Made by a program: the position numbers and the translations under genes. Source: Planctomycetota bacterium (GTDB lineage Bacteria; Planctomycetota; Phycisphaerae; UBA1845). Taken from it: a DNA stretch of 57,348 nucleotides. The notes under the pieces were generated by a model. The model saw nothing but the letters and a program-made list of their open reading frames with translations, did not search any database and was not told where the DNA came from. This document shows positions 16,832 to 21,962 of this stretch, piece after piece. Position 1 is the stretch's first letter; each line of letters starts with the position of its first letter. The stretch covers positions 1-57,348 of the forward strand of contig JAJRWX010000002.1 of the NCBI GenBank assembly GCA_024276605.1, written 5' to 3'.

Positions 16832-17970
16832 TGTCCCTATGTATTTCGTTTAGTCAGATGCGCAATAGATCCGCTTCCATCTATTATGAGGAGTGCAATT
16901 CCTATGCCGGAAGTTCGTGGAATTCGTTAATAGAAAGGTTAATCCAGGTGATGACGAAGATAAAGCGTCTCATTGCAACCGATGAGCGTGGGGCCGGTGA
17001 CACTTTCGGCGAGGTGGGTGCAATGCGTCAGAGCCGCCCCGATGTACATTGGGATGAATCTGCGGGCATTCTTGCCACCCACTCACGTAACTTTGCGTTT
17101 GGGAATGGTTGCTAGACCTGTCCGCTTACAGTTCGAGAGTGCTCACACCCGATCCAACATCACCAGGCTCGCGCCAGGTGTTCTGAACAACCAGACGTCG
17201 ATTTTGTAACGCACACAGTAGCATGGCAGTCGATTCAGGTGTGCCAAGCTTGGTATCACGTATAGAAAGTGGCTGAAGGAACGGGGTCCGTGACACTTCC
17301 GGCGGCTTGAGAACCGTTCCTCGTTGCAGCCTGAAAGGCTGACCGAAAGTAGCCGTGGGCAAGTCCGCCGCAGGCGGATGCCGCTCACGGTAAACCCAAC
17401 ATGCGTTCCATTCGACCCTGCAGGGGTCGCACAAGCGCCGCGTCGCACACATCTCGCAGAATAGACGACCCTTTCAGGGGCGAGCAGGCCTTCGGCCTGC
17501 AACAACTGCCGCCGATTCTGTCACGGACCCGAAGGAACGGGGATAATACCCTTTCGATTGCCTAAACTTGGCTATTGTGTTAGCATGAGGTGTCCAGATC
17601 AGGTGTCGAAGCTCATTCTTGCTACCTTGCGATGCCGCAACACGAATCTACTCGCTCAATCTGGACCGCCGAATGAACGACATCCGTCCCCCACTCCTAG
17701 GCTCGGTGATCGTGCCCCCCACGGCAAATCGGCCAGTATAGATGGTTAGCCTGGATGATGCGCCTACGGATGGGCGGTGTATGACAGGCTTCTCGCAATA
17801 CAGGCGGACAGTGACTACTGAAAATGGCCAGCTCTAGCCCTCCGACAACCTCGTAGGGCGGGAGGAGGAGGTCCATTTGAGATACGAGGACAGCTGACTG
17901 AGGGCAGGGCTGGTGCGGCAGAATCTGGCGGCACGAGTCTTCAACTCAGAGAACGGAGAAGGCAACCTGC
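16832..17970. other. 1.1-kb non-coding, repeat-bearing region
   Basis: No convincing gene: the frames here lack recognisable motifs and ribosome-binding sites and overlap repeats. It contains the insertion-like segment at 17275-17542 and a degenerate relative of its left end near 16989-17015 (GGGGCCGGTGACACTTTCGG). It separates housekeeping genes from the more G+C-rich three-gene cluster, consistent with a region that has received foreign DNA. Confidence 0.5.
17275..17542. mobile_element. Small non-coding insertion with inverted tips and 12-bp direct repeats
   Basis: GAAGGAACGGGG occurs at 17275-17286 and again at 17531-17542. Just inside, TCCGTGAC (17287-17294) and GTCACGGA (17520-17527) are perfect inverted repeats; including the flanking bases, GGTCCGTGAC and GTCACGGACC match over 10 bp. 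The interior has further G+C-rich palindromes (GCAGGCCTTCGGCCTGC near 17484; CCGCCGCAGGCGG near 17371). The arrangement suggests a non-autonomous element with a target duplication. No transposase inside. Confidence 0.5.
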
Positions 17971-18837
17971 ATGGATAAGACGATCGTTTCTAGTAGGAGT
18001 CAAGGTGAGGATCACTGGTTGCCGTCCCGCACGGATCCGTGCGATAAAGATGATGGACTGATTACCACGGCTCTTCTCTTGGCCGCTGGAGCGGGGACAC
18101 GTCTACAGCCGCTGACAGACAACAGCCCCAAGTGCCTTACGGAAGTGCGCGGCATTCCCATTCTAAAACGGCTTCTTTCTTGCCTAGTGGAGGAGGGCTT
18201 CAGGCGGTTGGTTGTAGTCGTCGGTTACCGCGACGCGCAAATCCGCGATTATTTGGAACGGCATTCTTCAGGGCTTACGATCGACTTCGTGGACTGCCGT
18301 GAGTTTGCGACGACAAACAACATCTACTCCCTTTGGCGGGCACGTGAACACGTTCGAGAACCGTTCGTCTTAATTGAATCGGACTTAGTGTTCGATTCGC
18401 ATCTACTGGGCCTGATGCGTGTTCGGGATCGCATCGCCGTTGCCCGCTTTCAATCGCCCTTGCTTGGGACGACTGTCTCGATAAACGAGTTTGGACGTGT
18501 TCTATCATTCCGTGTTGGGGCCGACCCGTGCACGACTGAGTTAGGGCATAAGACCGTCAACGTGTATAGCTTGTCGAAGGCGACTTGGCTGGAAGTTATC
18601 CGACGATTAGATCAGCATATTGCTGCGGGCAAAGTGCATGACTACTACGAGGTCGTGTTCGCGGAGATGGTCGCCGAAGGTTTGCTGGCGCTGCAATCGG
18701 TTCACTTTGACGAAGGACGTTGGTGCGAGATTGACACGCTCGAAGATCTCCAAATAGCCGAACAGATCTTTCTTGATCCGCAAGATGCGTACGGACCACA
18801 GATTGCGAAACGTTCGTGCTCCTTGCGGGTATCATGA
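17971..18837 (+). CDS. Sugar/choline-phosphate nucleotidyltransferase (LicC-like)
   Basis: 288 residues. LLLAAGAGTRLQPLTDNSPK (about 36-55) is the NTP-binding signature of nucleotidyltransferases (G-x-G-T-R and P-K). LVVVVGYRDAQIRDYLERH, TTNNIYSLWRAREH (about 114-127) and IESDLVF with a metal-binding Asp near 138 match the LicC-type CTP:phosphocholine, 2-aminoethylphosphonate and inositol-1-phosphate cytidylyltransferases. The ending WCEIDTLEDLQIAE is also typical of them. It should make a CDP- or NDP-activated head group. The first ~30 residues look unstructured. AGAAGG lies upstream of the ATG. Its stop overlaps the next gene's start (ATGA), and a CDP-alcohol phosphotransferase follows. The exact substrate is not determined. 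Confidence 0.78.
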   Translation: MDKTIVSSRSQGEDHWLPSRTDPCDKDDGLITTALLLAAGAGTRLQPLTDNSPKCLTEVRGIPILKRLLSCLVEEGFRRLVVVVGYRDAQIRDYLERHSSGLTIDFVDCREFATTNNIYSLWRAREHVREPFVLIESDLVFDSHLLGLMRVRDRIAVARFQSPLLGTTVSINEFGRVLSFRVGADPCTTELGHKTVNVYSLSKATWLEVIRRLDQHIAAGKVHDYYEVVFAEMVAEGLLALQSVHFDEGRWCEIDTLEDLQIAEQIFLDPQDAYGPQIAKRSCSLRVS

Positions 18838-19823
18838 CGGGGTCGCAAGGCGCAACTGACCACAGCGGAGTCGTTGTCGCCGGGGAAACCCCGCGTCAAC
18901 TCAATTACACGAAGGTTCGGGCGTATTGGAAGAGTGCGCGACCGTCAATGCTTGGTCCCTACATGATGGACGGGTTCGGGTTCCCCGTCGGCGCGGGGCG
19001 CTTTCGTTTTCGTGGCGAAGTAAAGGCGGTCGCAGAAGCGATAAAAGACCTCAAACCGGAAACGTCGGTGCTGGACCTTGGCTGTGGCATAGGCGTGTGG
19101 GCGGAGTACTTCGCGCAACGCTTCTCAAGAGTAGTGGCGGTCGAGGCTAGCTCAACGCTGTACACGGTGTTGAAGGAACGATGCTCACCCTATCCGAACG
19201 TGACCACACACCACCGCGACGTGTTATCCTTCGAGATGAAAAACGATTGCGGGGCTGCAGAAGGGTTTGGATCCACCAGTGGGTTTGGGCTGGTTTTTCT
19301 CGGTGGTTTGCTGATGTACTTGAACGATCACGATGTTTCGATCCTGCTGCGCAAGCTCGTTTCACACCTTAAACCGGGCGCGATAGTACTTTGTCGTGAG
19401 TCCACGATTCGCCAAGGTGTCGACACGTTGCAAGGCGATTATCAGGTCGTTTACCGCTCGGTTGAAACATATCGGAACATTCTTGTGGATGCCGGCTTCG
19501 ACGTCATGAAGGTACAGGGCAACAACGCATACATCAGCGTGCAAATGGCCTGCGAACTTGTCAAGAAATGGAAGGCGCTTGTGCCGGCGCGATTCCGATG
19601 TCTCCCAATCGTCGGTCGCCTTGCGTACTTGGGGTTTCGCTTGGGCTACCCGTGGAATACGAGGCTGATTCCTTGGCTGTTGACCAGAATGGGGTGCGAG
19701 TTCCCGTGGTTGACGAACCACTTCTTTGTTCTACGGCCAAGTATACAGGCCGCAGCGGACCGGATGGACGCGCCGTCGCACGGCACGCAGGTCGGGCAAG
19801 AGAGGATGCAGAAATCGCGTTGA
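18834..19823 (+). CDS. SAM-dependent methyltransferase
   Basis: 329 residues from the ATG at 18834, which overlaps the preceding TGA as ATGA; a GTG at 18816 is a less likely start. The class I SAM-binding core is clear: VLDLGCGIGVWAEYFA (about 79-94), VVAVEASSTLY, HHRDVLSFE and LVFLGGLLMYLNDHDVSILLRKLVSHLKPGA (split: post-I and motif III regions). About 90 C-terminal residues follow, with hydrophobic, aromatic stretches (RCLPIVGRLAYLGFRLGYPW), perhaps for membrane or lipid contact. Context (cytidylyltransferase before, CDP-alcohol phosphotransferase after) suggests methylation of an amino-alcohol head group, by analogy with phospholipid N-methylation, but this is inference. It overlaps the next gene as TTGA. 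Confidence 0.75.
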   Translation: MTGSQGATDHSGVVVAGETPRQLNYTKVRAYWKSARPSMLGPYMMDGFGFPVGAGRFRFRGEVKAVAEAIKDLKPETSVLDLGCGIGVWAEYFAQRFSRVVAVEASSTLYTVLKERCSPYPNVTTHHRDVLSFEMKNDCGAAEGFGSTSGFGLVFLGGLLMYLNDHDVSILLRKLVSHLKPGAIVLCRESTIRQGVDTLQGDYQVVYRSVETYRNILVDAGFDVMKVQGNNAYISVQMACELVKKWKALVPARFRCLPIVGRLAYLGFRLGYPWNTRLIPWLLTRMGCEFPWLTNHFFVLRPSIQAAADRMDAPSHGTQVGQERMQKSR

Positions 19824-20485
19824 ATAAACCGCTAAGACAACTCTACTGCAATCTCCCAAACATCGTTTCGTTTGTCGGCGTGCTACCGCTCTTCATCCTT
19901 CTCCGGGAGGACGCGTTTATCTATCTCTGCCCGCTCATCGTCTTCAACAACATCATGGATGATTTGGACGGAATTCTGGCCAAGAAGTTGGGGCTTTGCA
20001 GTGAATTCGGTGCCGGGTTGGACAATGTATGCGACGCGGTGGCGCACATCCTCATTGCAATGGTTGTCGGCTTCCATTTTGGTGGAGTCGTGCTGGCGGC
20101 TAGCCTACTCTCTGCCGTCGCGATTCTTATTCGTGTTGTTCAGCGAATAGCCCCTTCTCACGTTCCCGGAACCGGGACGCCGACCAACGAATTAATGCGT
20201 CACCTCCTGCTATTGACCATGCTCCATCAGTTCTATGCCTTCGAGATCACTACATACCTTGTCGCTGTGTACCTTCTGAACTCGGCGTCGATGCTCGTAC
20301 CATTTGCCATGCCTCACCTTGTTCGCTCGAAAACCAAGTCAGCGACGGCGATCCTGGGCGTCAATGTTGCCCTTGTGCTTACCTGGGTTTCCCCCGAAAC
20401 CGCACCTTTCATGGCGGTAGTCTTCTTGGGCACATATCTCTATTCGTTTGCGGTGGGCGCTGTGGGATGGCTCCGAGCGGGATGA
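19820..20485 (+). CDS. CDP-alcohol phosphotransferase
   Basis: 221 residues from TTG 19820, which overlaps the methyltransferase stop (TTGA); the open frame extends further upstream but that part overlaps the methyltransferase gene. Asp47, Asp50-Gly51, Ala54-Lys55, Gly64, Asp68 and Asp72 fit the family motif D-x2-DG-x2-AR-x8-G-x3-D-x3-D exactly, except that Arg is replaced by Lys55. The aspartates bind the two metal ions. About six hydrophobic helices are visible, as expected for this inner-membrane family, which moves a phospho-alcohol from a CDP-linked donor to an acceptor alcohol such as diacylglycerol. Paired with the LicC-like enzyme, it suggests a Kennedy-type lipid head-group pathway. 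Confidence 0.82.
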   Translation: MNKPLRQLYCNLPNIVSFVGVLPLFILLREDAFIYLCPLIVFNNIMDDLDGILAKKLGLCSEFGAGLDNVCDAVAHILIAMVVGFHFGGVVLAASLLSAVAILIRVVQRIAPSHVPGTGTPTNELMRHLLLLTMLHQFYAFEITTYLVAVYLLNSASMLVPFAMPHLVRSKTKSATAILGVNVALVLTWVSPETAPFMAVVFLGTYLYSFAVGAVGWLRAG

Positions 20486-20516: not shown

Positions 20517-21962
20517 CTACACTTTGGTGTGTACCCATTTACCTCGATAGTAACGTGTTAGTCCAGCGGCGCCACGCCAAATATTATCTGCGAACATACC
20601 CATCCAAGCGCCAAGCAGGCCACCTTGTAGGACGATTCCACAGATGTAACCTGTCAATATGCGTATGTTGACGCCGACTATGGTGATCAGCAGGGGGTAT
20701 TTTGTATCACCCGCCCCACGTAAAGCCCAGATGTAAACAATGGCTATGACAAGTATCGGTTGGAGTAGAGATAAGTAGCGGAAGGGGGCTGCGCCGGCGA
20801 GACGAACCTCTTTGTCCGTGCTCATTACGTCATAAATCAGGTCAGCACCAAAATAGAAAAATGCCGCGACGAACAGTGAGAGTAGTCCGCATTGCATAAC
20901 GGCTTCGTGCGCGATGCGACGGGCGCGGGCAATGTTCGCTGCACCAAGTGCCTGGCCAATCATGGTGGCTGTGGCCGTAGACCACGCTACGGCAGGAAGG
21001 TAGGTTAGTGCTTCGACGCGGATAGCGACGATGTGGGCTGCGAAGAGAATCTGGCTTTGCTGTGGGTCTGCCAATCGTGAGATGATCGCCAGGAATATGA
21101 AGTGTCCGGACCACATGATCGCGCCATCTGCGGCTGCGGGGGTTCCGATGTTGAGTATTCGTTTGACGTCCTGCAGGCGGAGTTTGAGTAGGGGCGCTTG
21201 AATCATGATGCCGGTCCTACCGCGTGCGAGTACGAGAATCATCAACATTGCGCCGAGACCTTGCGCAGCGACCGTTCCGATGACAATACCTGTGATGCCC
21301 AGTTTGGGAATTGGCCCTGGTCCGTAGACCAACAAGTATGACACCAATATATTGACACCGTTGATGATGGCGAAAATAGCCATGGGTGTTCGCATGTCGC
21401 CAAGACCGCGAATAGCGGCGCTGCCGACGAGGGTGATGCAGAGGAAGAATAGGCCAATGGCGTCGAATCGGAGGTAATTGACGGTGATGGTGTAAGCTTC
21501 CCCGGTCATGCGGCAGTAGTGTGCGAACCAGGGGGCTAAGGTGTAAATGAGTAGAAAGATGCACAGGCCTACGATCGCAGCCAGGGTGATGGATTGGTTG
21601 GCGAAACGGTTAGCCTGCCGGCGGTCTCCTGCGCCTTCGAACCGAGAGACGAGTGCGGTAGTGCCGGTTCCCACAAGCATGGCGATCATTGAGCCTAGCC
21701 AGGCGACGTAGGCACCGAGACCGATGGCGGCGGTGGCTGTGTGGCTGATACGACCGGCGAGAAAAACGTCAAAGGTGCCTACGGCGGCGTTGAGTAGCTG
21801 TTCGCCAAGTACGGGGATGGCTAGGATGAACAAGGTACGGCGGATGGGGGCAGATACGAGTTTTGTAGAAGTCTGCGACTTCTTTACCAGTGGCTCTTGC
21901 GCTGGCTGATTCGATCCATCGAGCATGTCATAGTTTTCAGTGTCCGAATGGACGTTGGACAT
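20517..21962 (-). CDS. MATE-family multidrug/solute efflux transporter
   Basis: 481 residues with about twelve transmembrane helices in two homologous halves, the standard MATE size. LFILAIPVLGEQLLNAAVGTFDVFLAGRIS (N-terminal, split here: the PVLGEQLLN helix) and IGLGAYVAWLGSMIAMLVGTGTTALVSR match the N-terminal bundle with the conserved glycine pattern. The second half repeats the plan after about residue 250. It exports small compounds by Na+ or H+ antiport; substrate unknown. It is convergent with the lipid-type gene cluster (31-nt gap), without evidence that the two are related. Confidence 0.88.
   Translation of the reverse strand: MSNVHSDTENYDMLDGSNQPAQEPLVKKSQTSTKLVSAPIRRTLFILAIPVLGEQLLNAAVGTFDVFLAGRISHTATAAIGLGAYVAWLGSMIAMLVGTGTTALVSRFEGAGDRRQANRFANQSITLAAIVGLCIFLLIYTLAPWFAHYCRMTGEAYTITVNYLRFDAIGLFFLCITLVGSAAIRGLGDMRTPMAIFAIINGVNILVSYLLVYGPGPIPKLGITGIVIGTVAAQGLGAMLMILVLARGRTGIMIQAPLLKLRLQDVKRILNIGTPAAADGAIMWSGHFIFLAIISRLADPQQSQILFAAHIVAIRVEALTYLPAVAWSTATATMIGQALGAANIARARRIAHEAVMQCGLLSLFVAAFFYFGADLIYDVMSTDKEVRLAGAAPFRYLSLLQPILVIAIVYIWALRGAGDTKYPLLITIVGVNIRILTGYICGIVLQGGLLGAWMGMFADNIWRGAAGLTRYYRGKWVHTKV

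What the first reader, a model, noticed from the sequence alone, without database searches (positions are those of the whole stretch)
17971..20485. Three overlapping genes that look like a compact lipid head-group pathway
A LicC-like cytidylyltransferase, a SAM methyltransferase and a CDP-alcohol phosphotransferase overlap as ATGA (18834) and TTGA (19820), so they are translationally coupled. Known parallels are the Kennedy pathway (CDP-choline/ethanolamine), aminoethylphosphonate lipids and di-myo-inositol phosphate. A cytidylyltransferase plus phosphotransferase with an in-line methyltransferase could make an N-methylated phospho- or phosphono-lipid. The methyltransferase has a hydrophobic C-terminus. 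The cluster looks richer in G+C than its neighbours and follows a repeat-bearing 1.1-kb space, suggesting transfer. Substrates are not determined.
Basis: partly seen in the sequence, partly recalled or inferred. Interest (0 to 1): 0.75.

Follow-up and report, generated by a model that had tools for sequence, protein, structure and literature searches.

The report
Compact lipid head-group gene cassette
Three overlapping genes look like a small kit for building and methylating an unusual membrane-lipid head group; the same kit, often without the methylating gene, turns up in scattered bacteria of many phyla, but its product has not been measured.

Summary
The genes are real: NT 17971-18837, MT 18834-19823, PT 19820-20485, joined by ATGA and TTGA overlaps. 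NT is nearest by profile to LicC (2.6e-24) and PntC (3.9e-20), ahead of inositol and sugar enzymes. MT is nearest by sequence to phosphoethanolamine N-methyltransferases (1e-25), by fold to protein alpha-N-methyltransferases and those. PT has the phosphatidylserine-synthase fold, but keeps the motif Arg in 5 of 83 rows. Of 109 PT relatives found, 80 were kept, under 11 phylum names. NT and PT stay together; MT is missing or broken in 37 of 75 loci with both, while NT pocket columns do not differ. Among three congeners the cassette is present, inverted or absent at one site. Best reading: a CDP-amino-alcohol lipid head-group pathway with optional N-methylation; substrate, acceptor and order are inferred. 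Phosphonates are unlikely: no PEP mutase over cut-off here, 10 of 49 cassette genomes have one. A new variant of a known kind; ten literature searches listed no description of it.

The parts
17971..18837 (+). NT: LicC/PntC-type nucleotidyl (probably cytidylyl) transferase, 288 aa
   Evidence: LicC best full-length match; GxGTR...PK motif; E136, D138, E227, E253, D255 invariant in 68 of 68 aligned rows
18834..19823 (+). MT: SAM-dependent N-methyltransferase (PMT/NTMT-like), 329 aa, ATG in ATGA overlap with NT
19820..20485 (+). PT: CDP-alcohol phosphotransferase of phosphatidylserine-synthase fold, 221 aa, TTG start in TTGA overlap with MT
   Evidence: Asp 47, 50, 68, 72 invariant in 83 rows; motif Arg lost in 78
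16832..17970 (.). 1.1-kb intergenic space upstream of NT; 17601-17683 and 17957 onward share DNA with the inverted cassette of a congener
   Evidence: no Rfam match at gathering score
15515..16831 (-). flanking gene (Cys/Met-metabolism PLP-enzyme-like, my reading), left border of the variable site
20517..21962 (-). flanking gene (MATE-type transporter), right border of the variable site
   Evidence: Pfam MatE for its orthologue in L057

Best explanation
The cassette makes a phospholipid head group by a Kennedy-like route. NT joins CTP to a small phospho-amino-alcohol, most likely phosphoethanolamine, giving a CDP-amino-alcohol. PT, in the membrane, passes the phospho-amino-alcohol to a lipid alcohol such as diacylglycerol. 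MT adds one or more methyl groups to the head-group nitrogen, probably after NT has acted (on the CDP form or on the lipid), and is an optional decoration. Shown: gene families, conserved order, conservation of catalytic residues, frequent loss of MT without change in the NT pocket columns. Inferred: the substrate, the lipid acceptor, the order of steps and the product (N-methylated PE-type lipid).
For: NT profile (68 rows): LicC 89.2 bits over profile positions 4-240 of 253, PntC 75.5, an unnamed nucleotidyl transferase 52, inositol-1-P enzyme 50, sugar enzymes 49.3 or less. By my reading of these alignments NT E136 and E227 fall on PntC E104 and E196, which face the amine of AEP, where LicC has Asp (D105, D192; PMC6697681, passages); both are Glu in 68 of 68. 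An NT relative (L040, 51% identity) lies beside a CobD-like PLP enzyme, a LicD-family gene and another CDP-alcohol phosphotransferase; two more distant NT relatives are fused to CobD-like domains (158-199 bits, all below the CobD cut-off of 290.55 but above HisC). CobD-type enzymes make phospho-amino-alcohols (established knowledge, recalled). MT profile: plant PMT 1e-25 and 8.7e-25, nematode PMT 6.7e-17. PT: four invariant Asp, PSS fold Z 19.6, rmsd 3.4, 197 aligned. NT and PT distances move together (n 67, r 0.82, 0 of 999 permutations). Of 75 loci with NT and PT, 43 give an MT signal (5 of them broken) and 32 lack it, 4 of these with short remnants, one of the four weak (E 3e-3).
Against: PT's nearest fold uses CDP-diacylglycerol, and CPT1/CEPT1 score far lower (Z 9.7 and 8.2), so use of a CDP-amino-alcohol donor rests on the NT partner. 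No source of phosphoethanolamine is evident in the own genome: its best CobD hit is 93 bits against a cut-off of 290.55, and ethanolamine kinase was not searched. The own genome and 41 of the 48 other genomes searched have a PS decarboxylase, so plain PE would be redundant there. All 40 MT also match Pfam Methyltransf_PK, the protein N-terminal methyltransferase family; VIA-align ranks that family first (Z 23.4 against 20.8), and Foldseek ranks FPP methyltransferases first. NCBIfam ranks sugar enzymes first for NT, all far below cut-offs. The pocket inference is from sequence alignment alone; NT was not modelled, and the passages read give no phosphoethanolamine value for PntC. The loci were collected by PT, so that PT is kept is partly built in; NT itself is broken or cut in L080, L091 and L123.
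Confidence: 0.48

Rival explanations
1. A choline-type route: MT methylates phosphoethanolamine to phosphocholine as in plants and nematodes, NT makes CDP-choline and PT makes phosphatidylcholine.
For: MT's best sequence match is the plant enzyme; NT's best match is LicC.
Against: Both acidic pocket positions are Glu as in T. denticola PntC, whose activity with phosphocholine was too low to determine; the LicC residue that I recall as Trp136 aligns with Thr in NT (my reading). MT is absent or broken in 37 of 75 clusters with no change in the NT pocket columns. But another PntC has LicC-like aromatic residues, so the pocket rule is not strict.
Confidence: 0.2
2. A phosphonolipid route: NT activates 2-aminoethylphosphonate (PntC-like) and PT makes a phosphonolipid, methylated by MT.
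For: PntC is the second-best match with the same Glu pair; DhpI (phosphonate methyltransferase, recalled) is among MT's fold neighbours (Z 20.4, 191 aligned, 2.4 A); 26 of 49 genomes have some PEP-mutase-superfamily match.
Against: PEP mutase is above cut-off in 10 of 49 cassette genomes and not in the own genome, whose only match is methylisocitrate-lyase-like.
Confidence: 0.08
3. PT is a phosphatidylserine-synthase relative that takes CDP-diacylglycerol and a soluble alcohol, and NT works on a different molecule.
For: PT model matches archaeal PSS far better than the other CDP-alcohol enzymes listed (Z 19.6 against 12.0).
Against: NT and PT stay side by side under 11 phylum names and co-vary; the Arg that binds CDP-diacylglycerol in PSS (R49, PMC8633023, passages) is kept in 5 of 83 PT, though the next residue is Lys in 74; the serine-contacting Ser63 is Asn in 83 of 83.
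Confidence: 0.12
4. The acceptor is not a membrane lipid (a glycan, a polyol as in di-inositol phosphate, or another metabolite).
For: In three Nitrospinota loci (L068, L087, L100) an inositol-phosphate-synthase-like gene, an inositol-type nucleotidyltransferase/phosphotransferase fusion and an HD-domain gene lie inside or beside the cluster (names by my reading of the sequences); an NT relative sits beside LicD.
Against: The inserted fusion carries its own CDP-alcohol domain (my reading); among the commonest families of 122 immediate neighbours nothing of the kind recurs.
Confidence: 0.12

Closest known systems
CDP-choline pathway of Treponema denticola (LicCA + CPT), as summarised in PMC8590670 (passages)
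   Same: LicC-type cytidylyltransferase plus CDP-alcohol phosphotransferase
   Different: no kinase domain, a methyltransferase gene between, PT of PSS-like fold, NT pocket with two Glu (by alignment)
Phosphoethanolamine N-methyltransferase (PMT) route of plants, nematodes and Plasmodium
   Same: MT is nearest by sequence to the first domain of the plant enzymes
   Different: single domain with a helical insert, bacterial, in an operon with NT and PT; activity untested
PntC / Pnt phosphonate tailoring (PMC6697681, passages)
   Same: NT family and the Glu pair at the amine site (by alignment)
   Different: no PEP mutase over cut-off in the own genome
Archaeal phosphatidylserine synthase MjPSS (PMC8633023, passages)
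   Same: overall fold and four catalytic Asp of PT
   Different: motif Arg mostly lost, serine-contact Ser replaced by Asn, partner NT
PmtA / Pcs routes to phosphatidylcholine in bacteria (PMC8590670, PMC10434233, passages)
   Same: N-methylated head groups are a possible outcome
   Different: different enzymes; PmtA methylates ready-made PE, Pcs joins choline to CDP-diacylglycerol

Membership tests
LicC/PntC cytidylyltransferases | GxG(T/S)Rx4-8PK motif | tested here: met
   GAGTR(x8)PK at residues 40-54; R44 and K54 invariant in 68 rows; motif from PMC6697681
LicC/PntC cytidylyltransferases | best full-length similarity to LicC/PntC among solved structures | tested here: met
LicC/PntC cytidylyltransferases | use of CTP with a phospho- or phosphono-amino-alcohol | not testable with these tools
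   needs assay
Lic (phosphocholine) pathway | licA kinase, licB permease and licD beside licC | tested here: not met
   none lies in the window cluster; not among the 25 commonest families of 122 neighbours elsewhere. L040 is an exception with a LicD-family gene. The rest of the own genome was not searched for them
CDP-alcohol phosphotransferases | DxxDG(xx)A...GxxxDxxxD core (four Asp) | tested here: met
   D47, D50, D68, D72, G51, G64 in 83 of 83
CDP-alcohol phosphotransferases | Arg after the Ala of the motif (DGxxAR) | tested here: not met
   Arg at position 55 in 5 of 83 (Lys in the window); the next residue is Lys in 74 of 83. PT is placed by Pfam domain and fold as a divergent relative
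Phosphatidylserine synthase | curated family score and serine-contact Ser | tested here: not met
   TIGR00473 26.6 bits against cut-off 107 for the window protein; Asn69 in 83 of 83 at MjPSS Ser63
Phosphoethanolamine N-methyltransferase | similarity above other methyltransferase families | tested here: inconclusive
   best by profile against solved structures, but fold comparison puts the NTMT family or FPP methyltransferases first and all 40 rows match Methyltransf_PK
Phosphoethanolamine N-methyltransferase | methylates phosphoethanolamine | not testable with these tools
   needs assay
Pnt phosphonate pathway | PEP mutase in the genome | tested here: not met
   own genome (96% complete): no hit over cut-off, its one hit is PrpB-like; 10 of 49 genomes over cut-off
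IPCT/DIPPS (di-inositol phosphate) | NT closest to IPCT | tested here: not met
   50 bits against 89 for LicC

The most novel reading that the evidence does not exclude
A further bacterial route to N-methylated phospholipids, independent of PS decarboxylation and of choline uptake: a portable cassette of a CTP:phosphoethanolamine cytidylyltransferase, a PSS-fold phosphotransferase re-tooled to take a CDP-amino-alcohol, and a PMT-like methyltransferase that lineages gain and lose to tune head-group methylation.
Probability: 0.25. Interest if true: 0.82.

Novelty: new variant of a known kind. Interest (0 to 1): 0.6.

Why it matters
If right, some uncultured bacteria make (methylated) phospholipids by a CDP-amino-alcohol route; the review passages read name T. 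denticola as the uncommon bacterial case of a CDP-choline route (PMC8590670). It would give a marker gene set for such lipids and a natural experiment: lineages with and without the methylating gene. One genome named Scalindua (marine anammox) carries the three genes (L129), and anammox bacteria are reported to have phosphocholine and phosphoethanolamine lipids (title of Boumann 2006 seen in reference lists; paper not read). But only 2 of 59 genomes sampled in that genome's order, itself included, have PT at E 1e-10 or better, so the cassette is not a general trait of that order.

Tried and rejected
Phage or plasmid carriage: no PT relative in the viral contigs scanned by pattern, and no match in plasmids at 1e-15 or phages at 1e-10. 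RNA element in the space: none at gathering score. Recurrent operon partners: besides the cassette genes, only a regulator in 6 of the 85 sequence sets compared, a histidine-kinase-like protein in 4 and several proteins in 3 (first 30 sets shown); neighbour strands are even (33/32 and 32/30). Capsule setting: 122 immediate neighbours scanned of 124 listed (left out: L100:1-990, an insert gene, and the L106 neighbour, whose NT row equals that of L105); of 166 Pfam families the 25 commonest were shown, none hits more than 4 and none is a sugar or capsule family; one glycosyltransferase-like neighbour was seen by eye (L125). An invertible switch: no long inverted repeats flank the cassette in either orientation. 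A CobD-like supplier gene in the own genome: best hit only 93 bits. An MT N-terminal piece used as query did not bring out the PMT N-terminus. No base rate for habitat could be had, so the marine or hydrothermal look of the sample names is only an impression; PMC6946796 (passages) places one SZUA and one HyVt genome at vents. Literature: ten searches (two were on other questions) listed no description of this three-gene set; subscription papers and preprints are mostly not held, so this is no proof of absence. PMC7542103 (passages) lists a CDP-alcohol phosphatidyltransferase biased to piezophilic Colwellia; I could not tell whether it is PT.

Limits and dropped rows. The PT loci were collected with two peptide patterns (around NN[IFV]MD and G[ST]PTNELM), so conservation of those residues, and presence of PT, are partly built in; D50, D68, D72, Asn69 and Arg55 are outside the patterns. 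NT, MT and PT rows were taken only if one open hit covered the core, so broken genes are not in the alignments; NT is in two frames in L080, only residues 193-279 in L091 and 1-219 in L123. One search counted 76 loci; I dropped L100, whose 'NT' is the insert's enzyme, giving 75; L037/L092 and L041/L116 are pairs with the same sequences. 'MT+' (36 rows) means any MT signal, broken ones included. Frameshifts in MT (L039, L066, L068, L088) may be assembly errors. Nearly all loci are metagenome bins, and identical NT rows sit under different names (L105/L106, L037/L092), so phylum names are not all sound. The NT tree is a quick one with 19 of 65 inner branches open; it needs 16 changes of the MT label, not tested against shuffles.
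Full report
Observation. The window carries three same-strand genes that overlap as stated: NT 17971-18837, MT 18834-19823 (ATGA) and PT 19820-20485 (TTGA). The window is a contig of a 4.5-Mb genome, 96% complete. Its nearest named relatives are Planctomycetota metagenome genomes. Pfam domains of all three are over their cut-offs.

NT. A single-sequence search of solved structures puts S. pneumoniae LicC first (2e-16) and T. denticola PntC second (4.4e-9). A profile of 68 relatives gives LicC 2.6e-24 and PntC 3.9e-20 over nearly the whole profile, an unnamed nucleotidyl transferase 5.8e-13, inositol-1-phosphate enzyme 2.3e-12, sugar enzymes weaker. NCBIfam, by contrast, lists sugar enzymes first, none near its cut-off. 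The paper on PntC reports that Glu104 and Glu196 face the amine of 2-aminoethylphosphonate and that LicC has Asp105 and Asp192 there (PMC6697681, passages). In my reading of the printed alignments these fall on E136 and E227 of the window NT; both are Glu in 68 of 68 rows. That suits a small primary or secondary amine better than trimethylated choline, but it is a sequence inference. The same paper says that another PntC has the LicC-like aromatic residues, so the pocket rule is not strict.

MT. Best solved relatives by sequence are phosphoethanolamine N-methyltransferases of Arabidopsis (single sequence 2.4e-18; profile of 40 rows 1e-25) and of nematodes (6.7e-17, 1.2e-11). The model (mean pLDDT 84.4) is closest in fold to protein alpha-N-methyltransferases (Z 23.4, 219 aligned, 2.4 A), then to the PMTs (Z 20.8, 193 aligned, 2.9 A) and DhpI (Z 20.4, 191 aligned, 2.4 A); Foldseek by E-value puts FPP methyltransferases first, with NTMT1 and PMT close behind. 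All 40 rows match Methyltransf_PK, and also Methyltransf_25, _23, _11 and RrnaAD. NTMTs and PMTs methylate amines; the substrate here is open.

PT. The model (mean pLDDT 89.4) matches archaeal phosphatidylserine synthase over 197 of 221 residues (Z 19.6, 3.4 A), and other CDP-alcohol enzymes less: PIP synthase 12.0, PgsA-type 11.4, IPCT-DIPPS 10.3, cholinephosphotransferase 9.7, CEPT1 8.2. The four metal-binding Asp are invariant in 83 rows, but the Arg of the family motif, which in MjPSS contacts CDP-diacylglycerol (PMC8633023, passages), is kept in 5 of 83; the next residue is Lys in 74. MjPSS Ser63, a serine contact, is Asn in all 83. No NCBIfam model reaches its cut-off for the window protein; in the scan of 78 PT rows the best E-value for any family is 8.5e-10. 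This looks like a CDP-alcohol subfamily of its own.

Distribution. Of 294 sampled genomes of the phylum, six have an NT at E below 1e-60: the own one and five in two other family groups. In the own class 2 of 198 have PT. A scan of the genome-contig collection with a PT alignment found 109 relatives, 80 kept; 76 carry a phylum name, 11 in all: Planctomycetota 20, Pseudomonadota 19, Bacteroidota 10, Nitrospirota 9, Nitrospinota 6, Verrucomicrobiota 5 and others. NT lies upstream of PT wherever the contig reaches far enough; in L068 and L087 an insert separates parts of the cassette. One NT relative, L040, has no PT. Pairwise distances correlate: NT-PT 0.82 (n 67), NT-MT 0.90 (n 31), MT-PT 0.80 (n 40), 0 of 999 permutations each. 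No further gene recurs widely. So this is a self-contained module, patchy and probably moved between phyla, though names of metagenome bins are not always sound.

The optional methyltransferase. Of 75 loci with NT and PT, 43 have an MT signal, 5 of them broken, and 32 lack it, with MT remnants between NT and PT in L038, L076 and L093 and a weak one in L135. NT is broken or cut in three (L080, L091, L123); PT was the search key, so its presence is built in. NT pocket columns are the same in both classes (36 rows with MT signal against 32); none of the 14 PT columns that differ most is a near-invariant one. The original order is therefore probably NT-MT-PT, with MT lost repeatedly. This fits a product that is useful without methylation, and methylation after activation; it also fits an NT that takes both forms. 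MT in the window is intact and under purifying selection (dN/dS 0.26 against L057; NT 0.15, PT 0.14).

Locus history. Protein identities of the cassette to L057 (85/78/81%) are in the range of the flanking genes (72-89%). L123 has a cassette with internal deletions, and by its coordinates is the other PT match within the own family. Together with ordinary codon use this argues for an older cassette that is rearranged and lost, not a fresh arrival.

Function. The genome already has a PS decarboxylase on contig C74 beside a PssA-like gene (92 bits against a cut-off of 107), and 41 of the 48 other genomes searched have a decarboxylase. The cassette would therefore add a second, CDP-amino-alcohol route. 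PEP mutase is over its cut-off in 10 of 49 genomes (26 of 49 have a weaker superfamily match or better) and not in the own one, so phosphonolipids are not the general answer. A CobD-like enzyme and LicD next to an NT relative, and CobD-like fusions (below the CobD cut-off), point to a phospho-amino-alcohol. I commit to CDP-ethanolamine or a near relative as the NT product at about even odds, with the lipid acceptor inferred from the membrane fold of PT.

Known routes. The review passages I read list PmtA methylation, Pcs, CDP-choline in T. denticola and acylation as bacterial routes to phosphatidylcholine (PMC8590670; also PMC10434233, passages). Neither describes a PMT-type or NT-MT-PT route in the passages shown.

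Noticed in passing
L087:4773-7869, L068:3992-7101, L100:1-2896: In Nitrospinota loci an inositol-phosphate-synthase-like gene, a nucleotidyltransferase/CDP-alcohol fusion (IPCT-DIPPS-like) and an HD-domain gene sit inside the cassette, between MT and PT in L087 and between NT and MT in L068; L100's contig starts within the insert (names by my reading).
   Followed up: partly
L040:8168-12349 and L008:201-1328: An NT relative without PT lies with a CobD-like PLP enzyme, a LicD-family gene, another CDP-alcohol phosphotransferase and a phosphatase-like gene.
   Followed up: partly
L042:5911-7770, L045:8656-10551, L049:7722-9560, L052:7722-9761: Distant NT relatives in the same phylum are fused to CobD-like (L042, L045) or class-V (L049, L052) aminotransferase domains.
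   Followed up: no
L057/L174, L175: Within one genus the cassette is present, inverted or absent at one site, with no long flanking inverted repeats.
   Followed up: partly
L037:1622-2992, L038:6656-7999, L039:15052-16395, L040:12456-13721, and in L072 and L092: A helix-turn-helix regulator with an ImmA-like motif (my reading) recurs in these six loci.
   Followed up: no
L105 and L106; L037 and L092: Identical NT rows stand under different names, one pair in different phyla: probable binning errors or one record seen twice.
   Followed up: no
L129:6342-8645: A genome named Scalindua carries NT-MT-PT; only it and one other of 59 genomes sampled from its order have PT.
   Followed up: partly
window:20517-21962: The MATE-type gene beside the cassette has the largest codon-use distance of the 15 genes compared (0.181).
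   Followed up: no
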